Shown in pieces: positions 24,916-43,368 of a stretch of DNA of 43,973 nucleotides; the stretch's first letter is position 1; every line of letters starts with the position of its first letter. The DNA comes from Rhodospirillales bacterium (GTDB lineage Bacteria > Pseudomonadota > Alphaproteobacteria > Rhodospirillales > Magnetovibrionaceae): NCBI GenBank assembly GCA_024653965.1, contig JANLGW010000013.1:1-43973 (forward strand). The letters are read 5' to 3'. A program made the translations under genes and the position numbers. The notes beneath the pieces are model-generated. The model saw only the letters and a program-made list of their open reading frames with translations. It was not told where the DNA came from and made no database searches.

Positions 24916-25088
24916 GTCTTGGAACGTGAGCTGATTCATTGAAATCATGGCGTTTCCTGCAGGATATTAACCCATGTTATTGCCGTGGGATAATGCATGG
25001 GCCGAAGTAGATCACGGTGAAGATGCGCCGGTGTTGTGGCGGTGGTACCCTTGTGCGGCAGTTCTGCAACAGGTGGGAGAGAACAACC

Positions 25089-26096
25089 ATGGACAACATC
25101 GGCATCATCGGGGCGGGGGCGTTTGGCACGGCCATGGCGGCGGTGGCTCGCCGTGCGGGCCGTAAGGTGACCATCTGGGCCTATGAACCAGAGGTCGTTC
25201 ACGACATCAATACCAACCACGTCAACTCGGCTTTCCTGAAAGGCGTGGATCAAAAGGGCGAGCCGTTAGACCCCGATATTCGTGCCACCGGTGATTTGGG
25301 TGAAGTGTGCGCCAACGATGCGGTGTTCGTGGCGGTGCCCGCTCAGCACCTGCGTCGGGTGGTGGCAGACGCGGCGCAGCATTGGCGGCCCGGCGTGCCG
25401 ATCATGACGTGCTCCAAGGGGGTGGAACTCGACTCGTGCAAGCTGATGGTCGAGGTTGTGAAAGATTGCCTGGGCGAGCAGGCACCCATTGCATGCATGG
25501 GTGGTCCCACCTTCGCCATTGAAATCGCTCGCGGTCTGCCTGCTTCTGCGACGGTGGCGTGTGCCGATCTGGCCGTGGCGGAAGCCTTGGCGGCGGCGAT
25601 TATGTCGCCGGTCTTTCGTGGTTACGTGACGACGGATATCATCGGCGCGCAGTTGGCGGGCGCCGTGAAAAACGTGCTCGCCATTGCCTGCGGCGTGGTT
25701 CTGGGTCGGGGTTTGGGCGACAACGCACGCGCCGCATTGGTCACGCGCGGCATTGCGGAAATGACGCGCTTAGGCTTGGTGCTGGGAGCCGAACCCAAAA
25801 CGATCATGGGGCTTGCGGGCTTAGGCGACGTGGCGCTAACCTGCAACGCTATGCAGTCGCGCAATTTTTCGTTCGGTTACGAATTGGGCCAGGGCAAGAC
25901 GGTCGAACAGATATTGGCCGGGCGTGGCAAAACCGTGGCGGAAGGTTATTTTAACGCCCGCTCGGTCACCGAGTTGGCGCGCCGCAACCAAGTCGACATG
26001 CCCATCTGTCTGGCGGTCGAGGCGGTGCTGGATGTGGGGGCGGATTTGGACTCCATCATCCACGGCCTGCTGTCGCGGCCGCTGACGACGGAATGA
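25089..26096 (+). CDS. gpsA: Glycerol-3-phosphate dehydrogenase [NAD(P)+] GpsA
   Basis: A 335-residue cytoplasmic dehydrogenase that reduces dihydroxyacetone phosphate to sn-glycerol-3-phosphate for phospholipid synthesis. The Rossmann loop IGAGAFGTAMA is at the N-terminus. Family motifs include TCSKGVE, MGGPTFAIEIARG, GAVKNVLAIACGV with the catalytic Lys, and GLAGLGDVALTC. The start at 25089 follows GGGAGAGAACAA; the frame is open upstream but is not homologous there. The 173-base gap after hupT holds only a weak hairpin (CCCATG at 24971 with CATGGG at 24996). The gene is convergent with the next one, ten bases away. Confidence 0.96.
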   Translation: MDNIGIIGAGAFGTAMAAVARRAGRKVTIWAYEPEVVHDINTNHVNSAFLKGVDQKGEPLDPDIRATGDLGEVCANDAVFVAVPAQHLRRVVADAAQHWRPGVPIMTCSKGVELDSCKLMVEVVKDCLGEQAPIACMGGPTFAIEIARGLPASATVACADLAVAEALAAAIMSPVFRGYVTTDIIGAQLAGAVKNVLAIACGVVLGRGLGDNARAALVTRGIAEMTRLGLVLGAEPKTIMGLAGLGDVALTCNAMQSRNFSFGYELGQGKTVEQILAGRGKTVAEGYFNARSVTELARRNQVDMPICLAVEAVLDVGADLDSIIHGLLSRPLTTE

Positions 26097-26106
26097 CGCA
26101 AGTCCC

Positions 26107-26967
26107 TTAGCGCATTTTGGGAAGTACCAGGCGCTCTAGCCAGTTGCGCGGTTCGGTCTGGCGCACGCCGTCGATTAGGATGTCGCCTTCGACACCCAAC
26201 TGCCATGCGAGCGCCATGTTGTCCGGTTCAGCGTAGAGCTTCTCATAACGCGCAACCATCTCGAGCGCATCGTTTTCGTCGGTGAAAAAGCCTTCTTTGG
26301 TGAGTGCTGCGCGGCGGCAATAGATCAGCCGCGCCATTTGATAAAGATCGTATTCCGGGTGGTATTGCAAACCCCAGAACGTGCCCTTGCCATGGTGCAC
26401 GGTGATGGCATGCACACGCGTAAAGGCATTGCCCGCCAGCACTTCGCCGCCGGTTGGTAGATGCGTAACTTCGTCGAAATGGCTGACGAAGCCGTCAAAT
26501 GCGGTTGCTTTTCCCTCGAATAGGGGATGGCCGCGACCGGCCTCGTTTAACGTGATTTTGCGCGCCAGCCCCATCTCCCGGCCGTTTGGGTTGGCGGCCA
26601 CCGTTCCGCCCGCAGCGACGGCGGCAATTTGAATGCCCCAACAGGTGCCATACTGCGGCACACCGACACGGTACGCCTCGCGAGCCAGTTCAAGATGGCG
26701 CTGCACACGTGCGTCATCAGTTTTGTGGATGGTCAGCGAACATCCCGTCCAGGCGATGCCGTGGTATTCGCCCAGTCCCACCCCCGGAGCCAGCGCCGCA
26801 TCCGGATCGGAGGCAAACAGCACGTCGAAGCGCGCCGAGGGACACAGTCGCCCCAGCATCGACATGTATAGATCAGATGCCATGCCCATGCCGCATTTGG
26901 CCAAGTTTTCGCGGTCGTCCTTGGGATAACCGTCGATGACGAGAATGCGAGGGGTTGCGTGTGTCAT
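26107..26967 (-). CDS. Class I glutamine amidotransferase-like protein
   Basis: A 286-residue protein with the class I glutamine amidotransferase fold. The nucleophile elbow is YGTCWGIQ (Cys at about residue 109) and the His/Glu pair is in LQYHPEYDLYQ. An oxyanion-side GCSLTIHKTDD and a long C-terminal extension of about 75 residues are also visible. No synthase domain is fused, so it could be a free-standing amidase, gamma-glutamyl hydrolase, or GuaA-like subunit; the true reaction is unknown. The start at 26967 is supported by AAGGAG seven bases before the ATG; a longer frame to 27024 lacks such a site. It is the only confident minus-strand gene and is divergent from the ABC transporter operon. 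Confidence 0.8.
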   Translation of the reverse strand: MTHATPRILVIDGYPKDDRENLAKCGMGMASDLYMSMLGRLCPSARFDVLFASDPDAALAPGVGLGEYHGIAWTGCSLTIHKTDDARVQRHLELAREAYRVGVPQYGTCWGIQIAAVAAGGTVAANPNGREMGLARKITLNEAGRGHPLFEGKATAFDGFVSHFDEVTHLPTGGEVLAGNAFTRVHAITVHHGKGTFWGLQYHPEYDLYQMARLIYCRRAALTKEGFFTDENDALEMVARYEKLYAEPDNMALAWQLGVEGDILIDGVRQTEPRNWLERLVLPKMR

Positions 26968-27436
26968 GGCTGTAGTCTCCTTAATGGGGTTTAAAGGATA
27001 TCGTGCGCTGTCACACGGATGCAATGGTTGCTTGCGATGATGCGGGCGTTCCGCCTCCGCTTATGGGTGCCGGGCGCCAAATGGGAGCTGGCGAGTTCTG
27101 GCAGGGTATTGTTGTATGAAATTGATTTTTCATCATATTTTTGTCAGAAATCATCTATGCAGTTGCCAAGCAGAAATGCTGCATCTAAACTTATGTAACG
27201 AAAAGGCCTGTTTCGACCTATGCGTTTAGGCGGATGATTTGGAAAGCAACATGTGCGGCACCAAACGAGCCATTCACAATCATTCAGATACGGGTATGGA
27301 GGTTTTTCGTACCCATAAAACACACCCACGCGGGTTTGTTTGAACAAAGGTCGCGCCGCGCATGTGCATGGCGTGAAATATTTTTCGTTCCGCTTGTTTA
27401 AATGACACGGGACGTTTTTTAAGGGAGGAGCCAAAG
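26968..27436. other. Intergenic region between divergent genes
   Basis: No credible coding sequence is seen in these 469 bases. The AT-rich centre holds several dyads: ATGCAG with CTGCAT near 27155-27182, GGGTATG (27292) with CGTACCC (27308), and TTTGTT-TG-AACAAA at 27335-27348. The last lies about 90 bases before the binding-protein start and could be an operator. A strong ribosome-binding site, AAGGGAGGAG, precedes the ATG at 27437. I could not fix a promoter with confidence. Confidence 0.4.
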
Positions 27437-28513
27437 ATGTTTAAATCTACGGGTAAAATGATTGCAGGCGTATTGCTTGGTGCGGGTCTGACCATGGTGG
27501 CCAGCCAAGCCAACGCGGAAACCCTGCGCCTGCTCACCTGGGGTGGTTACGCCCCGGATAAGGTGGTGCAGATGTTCAAGGCCGAAACCGGCATTGACGT
27601 CGAGGTTACCAACTCCAACAACGAAGAAATGATCTCCAAGCTACGCGCTACCGGTGGAGCGGGCTTCGACTTGGCTCAGCCTTCGCAGGACCGCGTCGCG
27701 GGCGCGCAGAGCGAATTTGACATCTACAAGCCGATCGACCTCTCCAAGATCGACGCCACCAAGATCATCCCCTCCATGTTGGAAGGGACCAAGAAAAACA
27801 CCACCGTTAACGGTAGCGCCTATGGCGTGCCGCACGTGTGGGGCACCAGTCTGCTGGCGGTGAACACCGCTATGGCACCGGACGTGAAGGATTATCTCGA
27901 CCTGTGCGATCCAAAGTACACGGGCAAAATCTCCTATCGCCTGAAGCGCCCGATTCTGATGGCGTTCGCCTTCTCGATGGGCATGGATCCTTTCGCTGCC
28001 TATAACGACAAAGCCAAGTACCAGGACATTCTCAACAAGGTCGAGGCCAAGCTGATCGAGTGCAAGCCGATCGTGAAGGCATACTGGAGCGGTGCCGACG
28101 CCCTGATCGCTCTGATGAGCAGCGGCGAAGTGGTTGCCGCCAAGGCGTGGGACGGCACCGGCTGGAAACTCACGGCCGCGAAGCCTGAAATCAAGACCAT
28201 GGCCCCGACCTCGGGCGCGCTGGGTTGGATCGACACTTTCGTCTTGCCGAAAAAGACTCAGAACGAAGCTGCCGCTTACAAGTGGATCAACTTCGTGATG
28301 CGTCCTGAAGTGGCGGCGATGATCGTCGAAGCGGCGGGCAACTTCACCGCTGCCGTGGACGGCGACAAGTTTGTCGAGGAAGGCGCGCGCAAGCGTTTTC
28401 AGGACACCTTCCCGCCGGAAGCCATCGACAACATCAAGTGGTACCCACCGGTGCCGACCGGACTGGAAGAGATGGAAGGCAAGGTTCTGGACCGCGTCCA
28501 GGCCGCTAAGTGA
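27437..28513 (+). CDS. PotD/PotF-like periplasmic substrate-binding protein, ligand probably not a polyamine
   Basis: A 358-residue binding protein with a Sec signal peptide cleaved after ASQANA (residue 27). It has the polyamine-family fold: LLTWGGY, AKLRATGGAGFDLAQPS, YGVPHVWGT, KAWDGTG and LGWIDTFVLP. By eye against E. coli PotD, the aromatic residues Trp34, Tyr37, Trp229, Trp255 and also Asp257 have equivalents. The acidic pair Asp168/Glu171, which holds the amine, falls in YRLKRPILMAF, where Leu and Pro replace them beside Arg, Lys and Arg. With a phosphodiesterase and GlpD in the operon, a phosphate-bearing ligand such as a glycerophosphodiester is more likely. Family membership is sure; the ligand is inferred. 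Confidence 0.85.
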   Translation: MFKSTGKMIAGVLLGAGLTMVASQANAETLRLLTWGGYAPDKVVQMFKAETGIDVEVTNSNNEEMISKLRATGGAGFDLAQPSQDRVAGAQSEFDIYKPIDLSKIDATKIIPSMLEGTKKNTTVNGSAYGVPHVWGTSLLAVNTAMAPDVKDYLDLCDPKYTGKISYRLKRPILMAFAFSMGMDPFAAYNDKAKYQDILNKVEAKLIECKPIVKAYWSGADALIALMSSGEVVAAKAWDGTGWKLTAAKPEIKTMAPTSGALGWIDTFVLPKKTQNEAAAYKWINFVMRPEVAAMIVEAAGNFTAAVDGDKFVEEGARKRFQDTFPPEAIDNIKWYPPVPTGLEEMEGKVLDRVQAAK

Positions 28514-28535
28514 TCTTCGAGGTCAGTTGAGGAGC

Positions 28536-28564
28536 GGGCGCATGGGGAAAATCCCCGTGCGCCC
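28536..28564 (+). terminator. Strong hairpin between binding-protein and ATPase genes
   Basis: GGGCGCATGGGGA (28536-28548) pairs with TCCCCGTGCGCCC (28552-28564): 13 pairs with one T-G and a three-base loop, followed by CTCTCTTTCC. It can act as a partial terminator or 3' stabiliser, letting the binding protein be made in excess over the membrane components. Confidence 0.65.
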
Positions 28565-28639
28565 CTCTCTTTCCAAGAGCGTGATACTTGAATATACATA
28601 ACAGGTAAGCATGGGCCTGAAAGTGCAGTGGGGATGGGC

Positions 28640-29788
28640 ATGACCGACGCGACGGACGAGAGCGAACTTTACGATTTGGAATGCCGCAATCTGGTGCGCA
28701 CCTTCGGTGCTTTCATTGCCGTGGACGATGTTTCCTTCGGCGTGCCTCGCGGCGATTTTTTCTCTATCCTCGGGCCTTCGGGCTGCGGCAAGACCACTAT
28801 CCTGCGCATGATGGCGGGTTTTGATCGGCCCACTTCGGGCGACATTTTAATCAAGGGAAAGTCTGTCGTCGACGTGCCGCCGAACAGGCGCCCGGTGAAC
28901 ATGGTGTTTCAGCAATTGGCGCTGTTCCCCATGATGACGGTGGCGGAAAATATCGCCTACGGCTTGGTGCGTAAGGGTTTGAACAAAACCGACATCGCCG
29001 ACAAGGTGAAATCGGCACTGGGGCGCATCGGCCTGCCCACTTCGGGCGGCAAATCGATCAAGCAGCTTTCCGGCGGTCAGCAGCAGCGTGTCGCCATCGC
29101 CCGCTGCTTGGTGTTGGAACCCGCCGCTTTGCTGCTGGACGAGCCGCTCGGTGCGCTCGATCTTAAGCTCCGTGAGCACATGAAGGTCGAGCTTAAGAAA
29201 ATGCAAGATCAGTTCGGCACTACTTTCGTTTACATTACCCACGATCAGTCCGAAGCGCTGGTTATGTCCAATCATGTGGCGGTGATGAACAAGGGCCGGT
29301 TCGAACAGATCGGCAGTCCCCAAGATTTGTACTATCACCCGGACACCGCGTTTGTGGCGGGGTTCGTCGGCGACACCAACCGTTGGCACGGTCGCGTGGA
29401 AAGCGCGGATGCAAGCGGCGTCAAAGTGGTGTCGGCGGATGGCGTGAACCTGATCGCCACCGCAGCAGGTAAAACGCCGTTGGTGCAAGGTGGGGAGGTA
29501 GATATTTTTGTGCGCCCAGAATCGGTGGTGATCGCCACCGGAGAAGAGCGCGTATCGGGTATGGAAAACCGCATCGAGGGCGATCTGGTAAGCATTTTGT
29601 TCAACGGCGCCAATTCCCGTGCCCTGATCCGCGACCGCCATACCGGTGGCGAGTTGGACGTGGCGTTGCCGCAAACCGGCGAGTTTTCGCACCTCAAACG
29701 CGGACAGGCGGTGCACTTGGGCTGGGGCAAAGCGCAGGCCAAGGCCTTCGCTGCAGATGCCCGCCGCGACCAGGGAGTTGGCACATGA
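28640..29788 (+). CDS. ABC transporter ATP-binding protein (PotA-like)
   Basis: A 382-residue ATPase of the PotA/FbpC group. Walker A is GPSGCGKTTI, the Q-loop is in NMVFQQLALFP, the signature is LSGGQQQRVAIARC and Walker B is ALLLDEPLGALD, followed by the H-loop YITHDQSEA. The C-terminal third (after about residue 240) is a TOBE regulatory domain. ATG codons at 28634 and 28640 and a GTG at 28628 are in frame; 28640 has the best spacing to GGGG. It overlaps the first permease gene by four bases. It energises the transporter completed by the two permeases downstream. Confidence 0.92.
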   Translation: MTDATDESELYDLECRNLVRTFGAFIAVDDVSFGVPRGDFFSILGPSGCGKTTILRMMAGFDRPTSGDILIKGKSVVDVPPNRRPVNMVFQQLALFPMMTVAENIAYGLVRKGLNKTDIADKVKSALGRIGLPTSGGKSIKQLSGGQQQRVAIARCLVLEPAALLLDEPLGALDLKLREHMKVELKKMQDQFGTTFVYITHDQSEALVMSNHVAVMNKGRFEQIGSPQDLYYHPDTAFVAGFVGDTNRWHGRVESADASGVKVVSADGVNLIATAAGKTPLVQGGEVDIFVRPESVVIATGEERVSGMENRIEGDLVSILFNGANSRALIRDRHTGGELDVALPQTGEFSHLKRGQAVHLGWGKAQAKAFAADARRDQGVGT

Positions 29789-30648
29789 GGATGCAAAGTG
29801 CCACGCGGTTGGCTTTGTTTTTGCTGCTGGCACCCATTGTGCTGTGGCTCGCCCTGTTGGTGATTTTGCCTCATGTGGACATGTTCATGGTTTCGATGCG
29901 TGAACGTGTTGGCATTCGTCAGTACGAATATTCGTTCGCCAACTATGTCGAATTCTTCGTTGAGCCGCTTTATTGGCGCACGTTTGCGCGTACCGCGATT
30001 ATGTCCATTATCGCTACGGTCATGACGCTGCTGATCGGTTTCCCGGTGTCATATTATATCGCTAAGATGCTGCGCGGTCGGATGAAGAATTTTCTGTTTT
30101 TGCTGTGTCTGGTGCCGTTCTGGGTAAGCGAACTGGTACGCACCTTTGGGTGGATGATTTTGCTGCGCGAAAGCGGCGTTATCAGCAACCTGATGCAGTG
30201 GATGGGTCTCGTCAGTGGTCCGGTGGAGATGCTCTATAACGATGCGACCATCATGGTCGGCTTCATTTATACGTCGATGTTGTTTATGGTGGTGCCGCTG
30301 GTCTCGACGCTCGATAGCCTCGACGACAGTTTGGTCGAGGCGGGTTACGACTTGGGCGGAAATGCCTTCACCGTGCTGCGCACGATCATCATTCCCCACG
30401 CCATGCCGGGCATCGTTTCGGGTTGCATCGTGGTATTTATGCTCACGCTGGGCAATTATTTGACGCCGGTGTTGCTGGGCGGCAAGGATAGCCTGTGGTT
30501 CACCGAGCAAATTTACACTCAGTTCATCACCCGCTTCAATTGGGAGCAGGGCGCAGCCTTCGGATTCTTGTTGCTGGGGCTGTCGTCGTTGATTGTGTGG
30601 GCGGGGCTCAGGCTATCGCGCCAAACCCTTTCGCAGACGATGGGCTAG
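29785..30648 (+). CDS. ABC transporter permease (PotB-like)
   Basis: A 287-residue inner-membrane permease with about six hydrophobic segments, the first at residues 7-30. The EAA loop that docks to the ATPase is visible as SLVEAGYDLGGNAFTVLRTIIIPHAMPG. FWVSELVRTFGWMILL and LTPVLLGG are typical of PotB/PotH permeases. It starts inside the end of the ATPase gene and is followed 13 bases later by its partner permease. Confidence 0.92.
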   Translation: MRMQSATRLALFLLLAPIVLWLALLVILPHVDMFMVSMRERVGIRQYEYSFANYVEFFVEPLYWRTFARTAIMSIIATVMTLLIGFPVSYYIAKMLRGRMKNFLFLLCLVPFWVSELVRTFGWMILLRESGVISNLMQWMGLVSGPVEMLYNDATIMVGFIYTSMLFMVVPLVSTLDSLDDSLVEAGYDLGGNAFTVLRTIIIPHAMPGIVSGCIVVFMLTLGNYLTPVLLGGKDSLWFTEQIYTQFITRFNWEQGAAFGFLLLGLSSLIVWAGLRLSRQTLSQTMG

Positions 30649-30661
30649 GAGGATATAAGCG

Positions 30662-31516
30662 ATGATCCCCTCCATTCCCCAACCGAAAAGCTTTCGTGTC
30701 GCTTATGGCGCCTACGTGGCGCTGTTCTTCATTTATCTGGTCTTGCCGCTGGGCGTGGTGGCGGTGTTCGCGTTCAATGATTCCATGTTTCCGTCGCTGC
30801 CGTGGGGCGGCTTCACCCTGGATTGGTTTTTTAACGACACTCAGCCGCGACTAGGGCTGTTTCACGATCCCAGGCTGTTGAGCAGTATCTGGACGTCGTT
30901 TTTCATCGCCTGCTGGGTTACGGGATTGTCCGTTGCGGTTGGCTTGACCAACGCCTTTTTGTTTGAGCGTCAAGATTTCCCGCTCAAGAACGTGCTTTAC
31001 ATGGTGATGCTGTTGCCACTGGTCATTCCCGGCGTGATCCTAGGCGTTTCCATCCTGGTGTTTTCCAGCACCATCGCCGCGTTCCTTGAAACCAATTTTG
31101 GCCTGGACGTGTTTTTTCTTCGTCCGAGCAAGTTCTTGGTCATTCTGGGCCAATTTTCATTCATTGCGACCATCACCACCTTGGTTATTGCGGCGCGGCT
31201 GCGTAAATTTGATATCGCGCTGGAAGAAGCAGCGCAAACCCTCGGCGCGTCGAAACTGGTGGCAGTGTGGACAGTGACCATTCCATATTTGAAGCCCGCG
31301 CTCATCGGCGCGGCCATCGTGTCGTTCTTGATGTCCTTTGAAAACTTCAATACTACCTTGATGTTGGTGGGCTCCGATCAGCCGCTGACTATCGCCATGT
31401 ATGGGCGATTGCGCGAAGGATCGACCCCGGAACTGAACGCGTTGTCCCTGCTGTTGATGGTGGGAGCCGGCGCGCTGGCCTTGATCAGCGTGTTCGTGCA
31501 ACGTGACAAACCCTGA
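30662..31516 (+). CDS. ABC transporter permease (PotC-like)
   Basis: A 284-residue partner permease with about six hydrophobic segments. The EAA loop reads ALEEAAQTLGASKLVAVWTVTIPYLKP, and the region SFLMSFENFNTTLMLVGS is the usual PotC/PotI motif. The start at 30662 follows AGGAGGATA. It completes a binding protein/ATPase/two-permease importer whose substrate is discussed under the binding protein. Confidence 0.92.
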   Translation: MIPSIPQPKSFRVAYGAYVALFFIYLVLPLGVVAVFAFNDSMFPSLPWGGFTLDWFFNDTQPRLGLFHDPRLLSSIWTSFFIACWVTGLSVAVGLTNAFLFERQDFPLKNVLYMVMLLPLVIPGVILGVSILVFSSTIAAFLETNFGLDVFFLRPSKFLVILGQFSFIATITTLVIAARLRKFDIALEEAAQTLGASKLVAVWTVTIPYLKPALIGAAIVSFLMSFENFNTTLMLVGSDQPLTIAMYGRLREGSTPELNALSLLLMVGAGALALISVFVQRDKP

Positions 31517-31546
31517 TTTTTTTTGACCTCCCTGGAAGATTTCATC

Positions 31547-32296
31547 ATGACTGAAACACATCCCGCCCATATGCCGAAAATCATCGCCCATCGCGGTGCC
31601 TGCGGCAGCGCACCGGAAAACACGCTTGTTTCTATTGCTCGCGCTGCCGATCTGGGGGCGCAAGCGGTGGAGTTTGACGCCACCGTCAGCCTCGACGGAC
31701 ACGCTCTGGTGCAGCATGATTTCAACGTCGATCGGTGTAGCGACGGCCATGGTCCGGTGGTGCTGAAAACGCTGGACGAAATCGCCACCTTGGACGCAGG
31801 CGGTTGGTTCGCGCCAGAATTTAAGGGCGAGCGCATTCCGTTACTGACCGACGCGCTTGCGCTGGTGAGCGAAAGGGGCATGGCGCTCAATTTGGAACTC
31901 AAACCGACGCTCGGCTGGGAAGAACCCACCGTACGCGCCATCGCCCAAGCGTTGAAGGCGGCATGGCCCAAGGACGGGCGGATTTTGGTATCGTCGATGA
32001 GCACGCTGGCGCTCGACGTGTTTCACGACTTAATGCCCGATGTGGCGCTGGGGCTGATCACTTATGCGATCCCCGAACACTGGAACGAACGCTTGAAGCG
32101 TCACCACTGTCTGAGCTTGCACTGCTATCACGCCTTCGTCACGGAGGCTCTGGCAAAAGCCATTCATGCGACCGGACATCGCCTGCATGTCTATACCGTT
32201 AACGACGAGACCCAGGCCCAGGCTTTGTTTGCCATGGGGGTGGATGCCATCTTCACGGATCATCCCGAACGCATGTTGCCCTTGGTGCAAAACTGA
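31547..32296 (+). CDS. ugpQ: Cytoplasmic glycerophosphodiester phosphodiesterase (UgpQ-like)
   Basis: A 249-residue GDPD-family TIM barrel that splits glycerophosphodiesters into sn-glycerol-3-phosphate and an alcohol. The N-terminal catalytic segment is IIAHRGACGSAPENT, followed by EFDATVSLDGHALVQHDFNVDR with the metal-binding Glu/Asp and second His, and LNLELKPT. There is no signal peptide, so substrates must be imported first, as with UgpQ beside the Ugp transporter in E. coli. The ATG at 31547 has GGAAG upstream; a TTG at 31523 would add eight residues. It sits between the permease genes and glpD in one operon. Confidence 0.93.
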   Translation: MTETHPAHMPKIIAHRGACGSAPENTLVSIARAADLGAQAVEFDATVSLDGHALVQHDFNVDRCSDGHGPVVLKTLDEIATLDAGGWFAPEFKGERIPLLTDALALVSERGMALNLELKPTLGWEEPTVRAIAQALKAAWPKDGRILVSSMSTLALDVFHDLMPDVALGLITYAIPEHWNERLKRHHCLSLHCYHAFVTEALAKAIHATGHRLHVYTVNDETQAQALFAMGVDAIFTDHPERMLPLVQN

Positions 32297-32305
32297 AGGT
32301 TCACC

Positions 32306-33838
32306 ATGACCGAACATTCTGAGCTTTACGATCTTCTGGTCATCGGCGGCGGTATTAATGGCGTTGGCATCGCGCGGGATGCCGCCGGGCGCGGCTTGTC
32401 TGTTTTGTTGTGCGAACAAGGCGATTTGGGCGGGGCTACGTCATCGGCCAGCAGCAAGCTGGTGCATGGCGGCTTGCGTTATCTGGAACACTACGAATTC
32501 CGTTTGGTAGCGGAATCGCTTGCTGAGCGCGCGACGCTATTGAATATGGCGCCGCACATCGTCCATCCGATGCGTTTTGTGCTGCCCCATGCGCCGGGTA
32601 TGCGTCCGGCATGGATGGTATCTTTGGGGTTGTTTCTTTATGACATTCTGAGCAAACGTGATGCGCGTCTGGGCGCGTGCGGAAAACTTGATCTTACCTC
32701 CGCATTTCAAGGGGAACCGTTGCAAGACCATGTGCGCGTCGGTTTCGATTACGCCGACTGCACGGTGGATGATTCCCGTCTGGTGGTCTTGAATGCCCGA
32801 GCGGCCCAGGATCGGGGTGCGGACATTTTCACCCGTACCGCGTTGGTCGAGGCTCACCGAGAGGATGGAGTATGGAAGGCGAAGCTGCGCGATGCCGTTA
32901 GCGGTGTGGAGCGTGATGTGCATACCAAGGTGCTGGTGAACGTCGCGGGACCATGGGTGCGCAGCGTCATCGATAGCGCCCACGGCGTACTGGTTGGCAA
33001 GAACGTGCGTCTGGTTAAGGGCAGTCATATTGTTGTGCCGTGCCTGTTTGACGGCGATCATGCCTATATTTTGCAAAATGACGATGGCCGCGTGGTGTTT
33101 GTCATTCCGTTTCACGATGCCTTTACCCTGATTGGCACCACCGAAGACATTCTCGAAGCGCCGCCGCCGTTGGACGGCACGGGGTTTGGCGTTTCGGATA
33201 CGGAAAGCGAATATTTATGCCGCGCCGTGAACCGCTATTTTTCAAAGCAGATTTCGCCAGCCGATGTGACGTGGGCTTATGCGGGCGTGCGCCCCCTGTT
33301 TGAAGACAAGGCCGCGTCTGCATCGGCTGTTACGCGGGAATACGTGCTCGATCTGCAAGGCACAAACGGCGATGCGCCGCTGTTGTCGGTGTTCGGCGGC
33401 AAGCTTACTACCTATCGCCGCCTGGCGGAAAAGGTGCTGGATAAGGTGCGGACGTTCCTGCCCCATATGGGGCAGGCCTGGACGTCTGATGTTCCGCTTC
33501 CCGGTGGGAACCTGCCCGATGACGGCATGCACGGATTGTTGGCTGAACTGCAAACGGCCTATCCTTGGGCGACGGAAGTATTTCTCCGGGCGTTGGCGGA
33601 TCGTCATGGCACACTTGTTTTTGATGTGCTGGGCGATGCGGCCAATGAAGCGGCGCTCGGGAAAAACTTTGGTCACGGCCTTTATGCGTGTGAAGTGGAG
33701 TACTTCATTAGCCATGAATGGGCGCGTGAGGCTAATGACATTTTGTGGCGGCGCACCAAGTTGGGTCTTGTCATGGATGAAGCCGAACGAGCGGCTTTGG
33801 CGGGTTATCTTTCTTCATGTAGCGCATCAATGCGATAA
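32306..33838 (+). CDS. glpD: Aerobic glycerol-3-phosphate dehydrogenase GlpD
   Basis: A 510-residue FAD enzyme that oxidises sn-glycerol-3-phosphate to dihydroxyacetone phosphate and feeds electrons to quinone at the inner membrane. The FAD-binding motif VIGGGINGVGIARDAAGRG, the SSASSKLVHGGLRYLE signature, WAYAGVRPLF and FGGKLTTYRRLAE are in order, and the C-terminal helical domain is complete (RRTKLGLVMDEAE). It lies nine bases after the phosphodiesterase gene, whose product it would consume. It works opposite in direction to GpsA at 25089. Confidence 0.96.
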   Translation: MTEHSELYDLLVIGGGINGVGIARDAAGRGLSVLLCEQGDLGGATSSASSKLVHGGLRYLEHYEFRLVAESLAERATLLNMAPHIVHPMRFVLPHAPGMRPAWMVSLGLFLYDILSKRDARLGACGKLDLTSAFQGEPLQDHVRVGFDYADCTVDDSRLVVLNARAAQDRGADIFTRTALVEAHREDGVWKAKLRDAVSGVERDVHTKVLVNVAGPWVRSVIDSAHGVLVGKNVRLVKGSHIVVPCLFDGDHAYILQNDDGRVVFVIPFHDAFTLIGTTEDILEAPPPLDGTGFGVSDTESEYLCRAVNRYFSKQISPADVTWAYAGVRPLFEDKAASASAVTREYVLDLQGTNGDAPLLSVFGGKLTTYRRLAEKVLDKVRTFLPHMGQAWTSDVPLPGGNLPDDGMHGLLAELQTAYPWATEVFLRALADRHGTLVFDVLGDAANEAALGKNFGHGLYACEVEYFISHEWAREANDILWRRTKLGLVMDEAERAALAGYLSSCSASMR

Positions 33839-41658: not shown

Positions 41659-43368
41659 ATGGCCTTTACGATTGATCGATCTTCTTATGCCGCCATGTTC
41701 GGCCCTACTGTCGGAGACCGGGTGCGTTTGGCCGATACAGAATTGTTCGTCGAAGTCGAAGAAGACCGCACCATTTATGGTGAAGAAATAAAGTTCGGTG
41801 GCGGTAAGGTCATTCGTGACGGCATGGGCCAGGGCCAAGCTTCGCGTGAGCAGGGTGCGGTGGATACCGTCATCACCAATGCGCTGATCATCGATTACTG
41901 GGGCATCGTCAAAGCTGATATCGGCATTCGCGGCGGGCGCATCGTCGGTATTGGCAAGGGCGGAAATCCTGACACCCAACCGGTCGTAGATATTATCGTC
42001 GGCCCCGGCACCGAAGTGATCGCGGGTGAAGGCCGTATCGTTACCGCAGGCGGCATCGACGCGCACATTCACTGGATTTGCCCACAATTGGTCGAAGATG
42101 CGCTGCATTCGGGCATCACCACCATGTTGGGCGGCGGCACCGGTCCGGCCGAAGGCACCAACGCCACTACCTGTACGCCGGGGCCGTGGCACATGGAACG
42201 CATGATCCAGGCCGCCGAAGGCCTGCCGATGAATTTAGGCTTTTTCGGCAAGGGTAACGCGTCCCGCCCCGATGCTTTGCTGGAACAGGTGCGTGCGGGG
42301 GCATGTGGATTAAAGCTGCACGAAGACTGGGGCACCACGCCGAGCGCCATCGACACCTGTTTGAGTGTCGCCGAAGATAGCGATATCGGCGTCGCCATTC
42401 ACACCGATACGTTAAATGAATCGGGTTTTGTCGAAAATACGATCGCCGCGTTTAAGGGCCGCACCATTCACGCCTTTCATACCGAAGGTGCGGGCGGGGG
42501 GCATGCGCCCGACATCATCAAGGTGTGTGGTGAACAAAATGTGCTGCCTTCATCCACCAATCCGACGCGGCCCTATACCGTCAACACCATTGATGAACAT
42601 TTGGACATGTTGATGGTGTGTCATCATTTGGATGCGCGCATTCCCGAAGACGTGGCGTTCGCCGAAAGCCGCATTCGCAGGGAAACCATCGCGGCGGAAG
42701 ACATCCTGCATGATCTTGGTGCGTTTTCCATGATTTCATCCGACAGTCAGGCCATGGGGCGCGTGGGTGAAGTGATCATCCGCACCTGGCAGACGGCGGA
42801 CAAAATGAAGCGCCAACGCGGGCGACTGGCTGAAGAAGTTGGCAATAACGATAACTTTCGCGTCAAACGCTATATCGCTAAGTACACCATCAATCCCGCC
42901 CTTACCCACGGCATCGCTAAACATGTCGGTTCCATCGCCGCGGGCAAGCTGGCCGATTTGGTGTTGTGGAAACCCGCATTTTTCGGCGTCAAACCCGATT
43001 TGGTGGTGAAAGGCGGCATGATCGTTTCCGCCGCCATGGGCGATCCCAATGCCTCTATCCCCACGCCGCAGCCGGTGCATTATCGATTGATGTTCGGCGC
43101 CTTGGGTCGGGCGTGCGCGGAAACGTCGGTGACGTTTGTCAGCCAGGCTGCAATCGAAGAAGAAATCGATAATCGTTACGGCACGCTCAAGCAACTGGTA
43201 GCGGTTGAGGACTGCCGCACGGTGAAAAAAGCCGACATGATGCTCAACAGTTATACCCCCACCATCGAAGTTGATTCTGAAACCTATGAAGTGCGCGCCG
43301 ATGGCCAGGTGTTGACGTGCGAACCCGCCGACGTTCTGCCCATGGCACAACGCTACTTCTTGTTTTAA
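41659..43368 (+). CDS. ureC: Urease alpha (catalytic) subunit UreC
   Basis: A 569-residue nickel enzyme that hydrolyses urea to ammonia and carbamate. All active-site elements are seen: [10 protein letters not shown] (two nickel His), GLKLHEDWG with the carbamylated Lys and a nickel His, [25 protein letters not shown], the flap MVCHHLD with the mobile Cys, and SSDSQAMGR with the nickel Asp. The N-terminus ([20 protein letters not shown]) is standard and the length is normal. Three bases separate it from ureB. Confidence 0.98.

What the first reader, a model, noticed from the sequence alone, without database searches (positions are those of the whole stretch)
27437..33838. PotDABC-like transporter rewired for glycerophosphodiester use
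The operon joins a polyamine-type ABC importer with a cytoplasmic phosphodiesterase lacking a signal peptide and with GlpD. The binding protein keeps the aromatic box but lacks the acidic Asp168/Glu171 pair of PotD; the segment has Arg, Lys and Arg instead, fitting a phosphate. This would be a counterpart of UgpBAEC-UgpQ built from an unrelated transporter family: import of the diester, release of glycerol-3-phosphate, then oxidation to DHAP.
Basis: partly seen in the sequence, partly recalled or inferred. Interest (0 to 1): 0.75.

Follow-up and report, generated by a model that had tools for sequence, protein, structure and literature searches.

The report
Polyamine-type importer for lipid headgroup diesters
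A marine bacterium carries a transporter that looks like a polyamine importer but sits with the enzymes that cut up deacylated membrane lipids, so it probably feeds the cell intact lipid headgroups (best guess: glycerophosphoethanolamine) as carbon, nitrogen and phosphorus, although no binding test has been done.

Summary
The operon lies exactly where stated: binding protein (SBP), ATPase, two permeases, cytoplasmic UgpQ-like phosphodiesterase (GDPD), GlpD. The SBP has the PotD/PotF fold (model pLDDT 91.9; 20-26% identity). PotD's Asp168/Glu171 are gone; R168 and R171 are invariant in 104 of 104 rows; PotD's Asp257 is kept.
A GDPD follows the last permease in 7 of 80 related loci, from two GDPD lineages. 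Relatives adjoin UgpB/UgpA (11 of 80, all Thalassospira; two Sulfitobacter plasmids) or genes of the known marine ethanolamine cluster (12 of 80; 2 of 15; 1 of 11). In the window's genome one GDPD and one GlpD were found, no UgpB or glycerol kinase, no choline dehydrogenase over cut-off, but all eight ethanolamine-cluster genes and a separate putrescine locus. Best explanation: import of a glycerophosphodiester, most likely glycerophosphoethanolamine; cleavage to ethanolamine and glycerol-3-phosphate; GlpD makes DHAP.
Against: 52 of 80 relatives show no marker gene in the DNA held, and the basic motif also occurs in a branch beside choline-dehydrogenase-like genes. The ligand is untested. A new variant of a known kind.

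The parts
27437..28513 (+). periplasmic solute-binding protein, PotD/PotF fold, Sec-type signal peptide (MFK...ANA, by eye)
27932..27952 (+). codons of the SBP segment SYRLKRP (residues 166-172), where PotD has the Asp168/Glu171 segment
   Evidence: coordinates computed from the SBP start at 27437 and read
28536..28564 (+). 13-pair hairpin between SBP and ATPase genes; possible mRNA stabiliser or attenuator (inference)
28628..29788 (+). ABC ATPase with TOBE domain, PotA/PhnT2-like
29785..30648 (+). permease, PotB-like
30662..31516 (+). permease, PotC-like
31547..32296 (+). cytoplasmic glycerophosphodiester phosphodiesterase, UgpQ-like (first listed ORF start 31523)
   Evidence: the only PF03009 match in the genome
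32306..33838 (+). GlpD, FAD-dependent glycerol-3-phosphate dehydrogenase; the only one found in the genome
26107..27024 (-). divergent class-I glutamine amidotransferase domain gene, also beside the transporter in 5 of 80 relatives; possible gamma-glutamyl amide hydrolase (inference)
25017..26096 (+). GpsA, NAD(P)-dependent glycerol-3-phosphate dehydrogenase; a GpsA match also near the transporter in L003, L007, L013

Best explanation
A PotDABC-type ABC importer has been turned to glycerophosphodiesters, most probably glycerophosphoethanolamine (GPE). The SBP would hold the phosphodiester with the conserved R168/K170/R171 segment at the start of helix 171-180 and the ammonium end with Asp266 and the Trp/Tyr box (inferred). 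The ATPase and two permeases import it. The cytoplasmic GDPD splits it into sn-glycerol-3-phosphate and ethanolamine; GlpD oxidises glycerol-3-phosphate to DHAP; ethanolamine goes through the gamma-glutamylation pathway encoded elsewhere in the same genome to glycine and glutamate. Shown: gene order, families, conservation, genome content, co-occurrence. Inferred: ligand, flux, regulation. I put 'some glycerophosphodiester' at about 0.75 and 'GPE as the main ligand' at about 0.5.
For: (1) Operon with GDPD and GlpD, gaps of at most 30 bases from ATPase to GlpD. (2) GDPD directly after the last permease in 7 of 80 relatives, from two separate GDPD lineages (two changes forced by well-supported branches). 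(3) 11 of 80 loci (all Thalassospira) have UgpB and UgpA just downstream; on two Sulfitobacter plasmids UgpBAEC is just upstream by record annotation (2 of 11 plasmid records, 7 of which carry annotation), a different arrangement. GlpR or GlpD matches in 3 of 80 and 2 of 15. (4) At least one ethanolamine-cluster gene (EtoW, EtoX, ETAGA, GAADDH, GETADH; cluster from PMC10132767) in the flanks of 12 of 80, 2 of 15 and 1 of 11 loci; L003 and L007 have both GDPD and these genes; on Marinovum pMaD4 the whole cluster lies directly upstream. (5) In 387 class genomes ETAGA is in 10 of 17 with the SBP and 40 of 370 without. (6) Own genome: all eight eto-cluster genes on two contigs, a separate putrescine locus with its own Pot system, one GDPD and one GlpD found, no glycerol kinase or UgpB match, no choline dehydrogenase over cut-off. 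(7) Invariant basic segment plus kept Asp266 and aromatics. (8) Phaeobacter MED193 proteins named PotA/PotD are induced by P starvation in a PhoB-dependent way (PMC10132767 Table 1); orthology not checked.
Against: No binding or growth data. 52 of 80 close relatives show none of the markers GDPD, eto, UgpB+UgpA, GlpD/GlpR in the flanks held (lists), although some flanks are short. The basic motif is equally conserved in a more distant branch (under 60% identity) where 6 of 8 rows carry a choline-dehydrogenase-like GMC gene in the flank, so the motif may bind another anion. 7 of 17 SBP genomes lack ETAGA at the threshold used. Four of 17 SBP genomes gave no GDPD match at E 1e-10 with this GDPD as query. 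In the window genome the ethanolamine genes lie on other contigs. No convincing PHO box before the window's SBP (score 17).
Confidence: 0.6

Rival explanations
1. A broad or choline-type glycerophosphodiester importer (glycerophosphocholine, -glycerol, -inositol), with no preference for the ethanolamine form. Otherwise the pathway is the same.
For: GDPD families are broad in headgroup (recalled). The more distant branch adjoins choline-dehydrogenase-like genes.
Against: Own genome has no choline dehydrogenase over cut-off (other routes of choline use were not searched) and no glycerol kinase match but the ethanolamine cluster; linkage and co-occurrence are with ethanolamine genes.
Confidence: 0.2
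2. An amine importer (ethanolamine, another amino alcohol or a polyamine); GDPD and GlpD are neighbours by chance.
For: Closest solved structures bind polyamines. Asp266 and four aromatic-box residues are kept. Adjacent ethanolamine genes.
Against: Acidic pair replaced by an invariant basic segment. Ethanolamine already has the EtoVWX TRAP importer in these clusters, whose EtoX binds it at 7.9 uM in Phaeobacter (PMC10132767), and putrescine has its own Pot system in this genome. GDPD recruited twice to the same slot.
Confidence: 0.12
3. An importer of glycerol-3-phosphate or another small phospho-zwitterion (phosphoethanolamine, 2-aminoethylphosphonate); GDPD serves internal lipid turnover.
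For: Linkage to Ugp, GlpR and GlpD. Best ATPase model is PhnT2, below its cut-off.
Against: No phosphonate SBP model matched the SBP at E 0.001 (that such models are in the library is recalled). A GDPD would not be needed. Kept Asp266 does not suit glycerol-3-phosphate (inference).
Confidence: 0.08

Closest known systems
E. coli UgpBAEC-UgpQ (CUT1 family)
   Same: ABC import of a glycerophospho compound with a cytoplasmic UgpQ-type GDPD; UgpQ-like GDPD here (NF006989, 240 bits, cut-off 264)
   Different: SBP and permeases are PotD/PotB/PotC-like, not UgpB/A/E; GlpD is in the operon
PotDABC / PotFGHI polyamine importers
   Same: fold, subunit set, four aromatic-box residues and Asp257
   Different: 20-26% SBP identity to solved relatives, acidic pair lost, basic segment gained, phospholipid-catabolism context
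GpxB glycerol-1/3-phosphate importer (PMC12718374; outline and parts 1-3 of 6 read)
   Same: a non-Ugp ABC importer for lipid-backbone phosphates in marine bacteria
   Different: GpxB is placed in the phosphonate (PhnT) family; this SBP matches SBP_bac_8
EtoVWX and ethanolamine gamma-glutamylation cluster (PMC10132767; passages and part 2 of 8 read)
   Same: the adjacent or co-occurring pathway for the freed headgroup
   Different: a TRAP importer for free ethanolamine; in that paper import of the intact headgroup is left open
AepXVW/AepSTU 2-aminoethylphosphonate importers (PMC8316502, seen in a search listing only)
   Same: import of an amine-bearing organophosphorus compound
   Different: no phosphonate SBP model matched this SBP

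Membership tests
PotD/PotF polyamine-binding proteins | type II SBP fold and sequence homology | tested here: met
   PotD model NF007048 2e-28; nearest solved folds are PotD/PotF, Z about 34
PotD/PotF polyamine-binding proteins | curated equivalog cut-off of the PotD or PotF model | tested here: not met
   99 bits against 582 (PotD), 82 against 636 (PotF)
PotD/PotF polyamine-binding proteins | acidic residues for the amines (PotD D168, E171, D257; recalled) | tested here: not met
   only D257 kept, as D266
PotD/PotF polyamine-binding proteins | polyamine binding | not testable with these tools
   needs purified protein
UgpBAEC importer | UgpB-type SBP | tested here: not met
   no UgpB model match for the SBP at E 0.001; none in the genome
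UgpQ-type cytoplasmic GDPD | GDPD domain | tested here: met
   PF03009 136.7 bits, cut-off 23.6
UgpQ-type cytoplasmic GDPD | curated cut-off of NF006989 (glycerophosphodiester phosphodiesterase, UgpQ by recall) | tested here: inconclusive
   240 bits against 264: best model but just below
GlpD | curated cut-off | tested here: met
   NF008899 703 bits, cut-off 360
GpxB / PhnD-type | PhnD-type SBP domain | tested here: not met
   Pfam gives SBP_bac_8, SBP_bac_1, SBP_bac_6 only at E 0.001
2-AEP importer (PhnS/AepX type) | phosphonate SBP model | tested here: inconclusive
   no such model at E 0.001 for the SBP, but that the library holds one is recalled, not seen
Glycerophosphodiester importer (functional class) | binding of GPE, GPC or GPG | not testable with these tools
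   inferred from context only

The most novel reading that the evidence does not exclude
This subfamily of PotD-type transporters, easily annotated as spermidine/putrescine importers, is a dedicated uptake system for intact glycerophosphoethanolamine in marine bacteria, delivering C, N and P of deacylated phosphatidylethanolamine in one step, and is a second invention of the UgpBAEC-UgpQ strategy in another transporter branch.
Probability: 0.5. Interest if true: 0.72.

Novelty: new variant of a known kind. Interest (0 to 1): 0.6.

Why it matters
[quoted passage not shown] This operon and its relatives give a testable candidate for the glycerophosphodiester form. If true, some genes counted as polyamine uptake in ocean surveys would be phospholipid-headgroup uptake, which would shift readings of P, N and C flow. 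The SBP was found in 17 of 387 genomes sampled in the class, the window's own included.

Tried and rejected
GpxB membership: rejected. Phosphonate (PhnS/AepX) membership: unlikely, no model match. The idea that the basic motif marks only the GDPD-linked copies: rejected, it is in all 104 rows. One GDPD gained once and inherited by all GDPD-linked loci: rejected on the GDPD tree; the SBP tree alone does not exclude it. PHO box in the window: none convincing (score 17); over 90 upstream regions a simple score finds 29 of 90 at 18 or more against 72 of 456 control regions, and 5 of 90 against 4 of 456 at 22 or more, suggestive only since the loci are related. A wider survey around G382 failed: its family held only 14 genomes, 2 of them with a match at E 1e-130. 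Model coordinates are not in the Python box, so no docking or pocket superposition was done. No paper on a PotD-type glycerophosphodiester or GPE importer turned up in the listings of searches (open-licence PMC only; two returned nothing; others were capped lists of 20 of 326 and 25 of 53 papers).

Rows dropped and doubled: 3 of 80 loci (L004, L017, L069) had too few transporter genes for gene calling; alignment A1 used 51 of 80 loci plus the window; the SBP tree used 60 rows; 3 of 106 loci (L056, L077, L081) fell out of the residue count because my pattern missed them. L111, L112 and L114 of the 15 class loci lie on contigs of the same length as L045, L060 and L078 and are probably the same records; L144 and L149 are near-identical Shinella plasmids. 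The two Sulfitobacter Ugp loci did not pass my own UgpB/UgpA thresholds and are counted by record annotation; 4 of 11 plasmid records have no annotation and were checked by tblastn only.

Odds for GPE set to 0.5 in the statement; overall confidence unchanged.
Full report
Observation. The six genes are present at the stated coordinates and read in one direction. Pfam and NCBIfam place them as an SBP of the PotD/PotF kind, an ABC ATPase with TOBE domain, two PotB/PotC-like permeases, a GDPD and GlpD. ATPase and first permease overlap by 4 bases; the later gaps are 13, 30 (with the GDPD start at ATG 31547) and 9 bases. Between SBP and ATPase lie 114 bases with a 13-pair hairpin.

Binding protein. 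An AlphaFold2 model from 52 aligned sequences reaches mean pLDDT 91.9. The closest solved folds are PotD and PotF chains, Z about 34, 20-26% identity. The profile alignment to PotD shows W34, Y37, W229, W255 and D257 kept, and T35, E36, Y85, D168, E171, Y293 and Q327 changed; PotD residue roles are recalled. The segment at D168/E171 reads S-Y-R-L-K-R-P at the start of helix 171-180. Over 104 rows (96 at 60% identity or more, the window included, 8 below) R168, R171, D85, R86, W238, D239, W264 and D266 are invariant, and K170 is K or R. A basic segment with a kept acid and aromatic box suits a zwitterion with an anionic and an ammonium end. This is inference: no pocket geometry was computed, and the loop register is uncertain by one to three residues.

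Genome context, own genome. The assembly has 2,990,654 bases in 153 contigs, 99.63% complete. One GDPD and one GlpD were found, both in this operon. No glycerol kinase (TIGR01311) or UgpB (NF008211) matched, and no choline dehydrogenase over cut-off (two short weak matches of 22 and 19 bits in one frame). It does hold the ethanolamine cluster genes: EtoW, EtoX, ETAGA, GAADDH, GETADH on contig 114 and RpiR, GGAH-type FGase, EtoV at the end of contig 117; that the two contig ends adjoin is likely but not shown. Also on contig 117 is a putrescine-type locus with two glutamine-synthetase-like genes, a class-III aminotransferase, a Pot-type transporter, a Peptidase_C26 gene, a DAO oxidoreductase and an arginase-family gene. 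So polyamines and free ethanolamine each seem to have their own importer here, and no glycerol-kinase source of glycerol-3-phosphate for GlpD was found.

Genome context, relatives. Of 80 relatives with SBP identity 64-78% (the best 80 of 543 were kept), 7 have a GDPD directly after the last permease (L002, L003, L005, L006, L007, L015, L021). The GDPD tree puts the first five with the window and the other two in a separate place; well-supported branches force two changes. In the SBP tree the two groups are also apart, though a single origin is not excluded there. L015 adds GlpR and GlpD just downstream. Eleven loci, all Thalassospira, have UgpB (over its cut-off in L019) and UgpA just downstream. 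On two Sulfitobacter plasmids UgpBAEC is just upstream; those two did not reach my own thresholds and are counted on the record annotation.

Ethanolamine link. Twelve of 80 loci, 2 of 15 from the class survey and 1 of 11 plasmid records carry at least one ethanolamine-cluster gene in the flanks, in several arrangements; L003 and L007 carry both GDPD and these genes. On Marinovum algicola pMaD4 the whole cluster runs directly into the transporter genes. The cluster's function in Phaeobacter MED193 is from PMC10132767 (passages and part 2 of 8 read). In 387 genomes of the class, ETAGA (E 1e-120) is found in 10 of 17 with the SBP (E 1e-80) and in 40 of 370 without; Fisher one-sided p = 5e-6, not corrected for relatedness.

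Results against. Fifty-two of 80 loci show none of the markers GDPD, eto, UgpB+UgpA, GlpD/GlpR in the DNA held; 28 of 80 show at least one (34 of 106 over all three sets). Among the 8 rows under 60% identity, 6 have a choline-dehydrogenase-like GMC gene in the flank (L103, L104, L106, L144, L148, L149), two of them near-identical plasmids, so the wider family may serve another amino-alcohol compound. Four of 17 SBP genomes gave no GDPD match at E 1e-10 with this query, and 7 of 17 lack ETAGA at the threshold used. The window's upstream region has no convincing PHO box.

Literature. GpxB (PMC12718374; outline and parts 1-3 of 6 read) is a non-Ugp glycerol-phosphate importer, but of the phosphonate (PhnT) family. 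PMC10132767 lists MED193 PotA and PotD among P-starvation proteins not induced in the phoB mutant, and GlpR as raised on phosphoethanolamine; I could not test whether that PotD is an orthologue. The same paper leaves open whether the intact headgroup is imported. PMC10130141 (passages read) assigns cadaverine, putrescine and spermidine to potFGHI of Ruegeria pomeroyi; the word ethanolamine does not occur in its text. The listings of my ten literature searches showed no PotD-type glycerophosphodiester importer.

Conclusion. The operon probably works like UgpBAEC-UgpQ but is built from a PotD-type transporter. The most likely ligand is glycerophosphoethanolamine. It fails the sequence cut-offs and the acidic-residue test for PotD proper, so it should not be filed as a polyamine transporter; whether it binds the diester needs a bench test.

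Noticed in passing
window 41811-42100, - strand: Rfam 5_ureB_sRNA match (98.6 bits, gathering 40), antisense to a 569-aa + strand ORF (41659-43368); may reflect conserved urease coding sequence rather than an RNA.
   Followed up: no
window 28536-28564: Strong 13-pair hairpin between the SBP and ATPase genes, perhaps favouring SBP expression.
   Followed up: no
L140 5486-6098 and L142 5493-6114 (Sulfitobacter plasmids): Two small genes on the other strand sit between ugpB and ugpA on both plasmids: a RelE/ParE-type toxin, with a ParD antitoxin in L142 and a gene annotated hypothetical in L140.
   Followed up: no
L103, L104, L106 (gene after the last permease); L144, L148, L149 (in the flank): A more distant branch of the transporter adjoins choline-dehydrogenase-like GMC oxidoreductases; perhaps another amino-alcohol substrate.
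   Followed up: partly
L019 3318-8670: In Thalassospira an N-acetylmuramic acid 6-phosphate etherase and a sugar-type ABC system lie just upstream of the PotD-type transporter.
   Followed up: partly
L110 (contig end, reversed): PotD-type operon followed by a GlpR-like regulator and a UgpB-like transporter, the models matched below cut-off.
   Followed up: partly
upstream of the SBP in L024, L044, L059, L064, L116 and others: PHO-box-like direct repeats in some relatives (29 of 90 against 72 of 456 controls at score 18).
   Followed up: partly
window 26107-27024: Class-I glutamine amidotransferase gene kept beside the transporter in L003, L005, L006, L007 and L011; may be a second gamma-glutamyl amide hydrolase.
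   Followed up: partly
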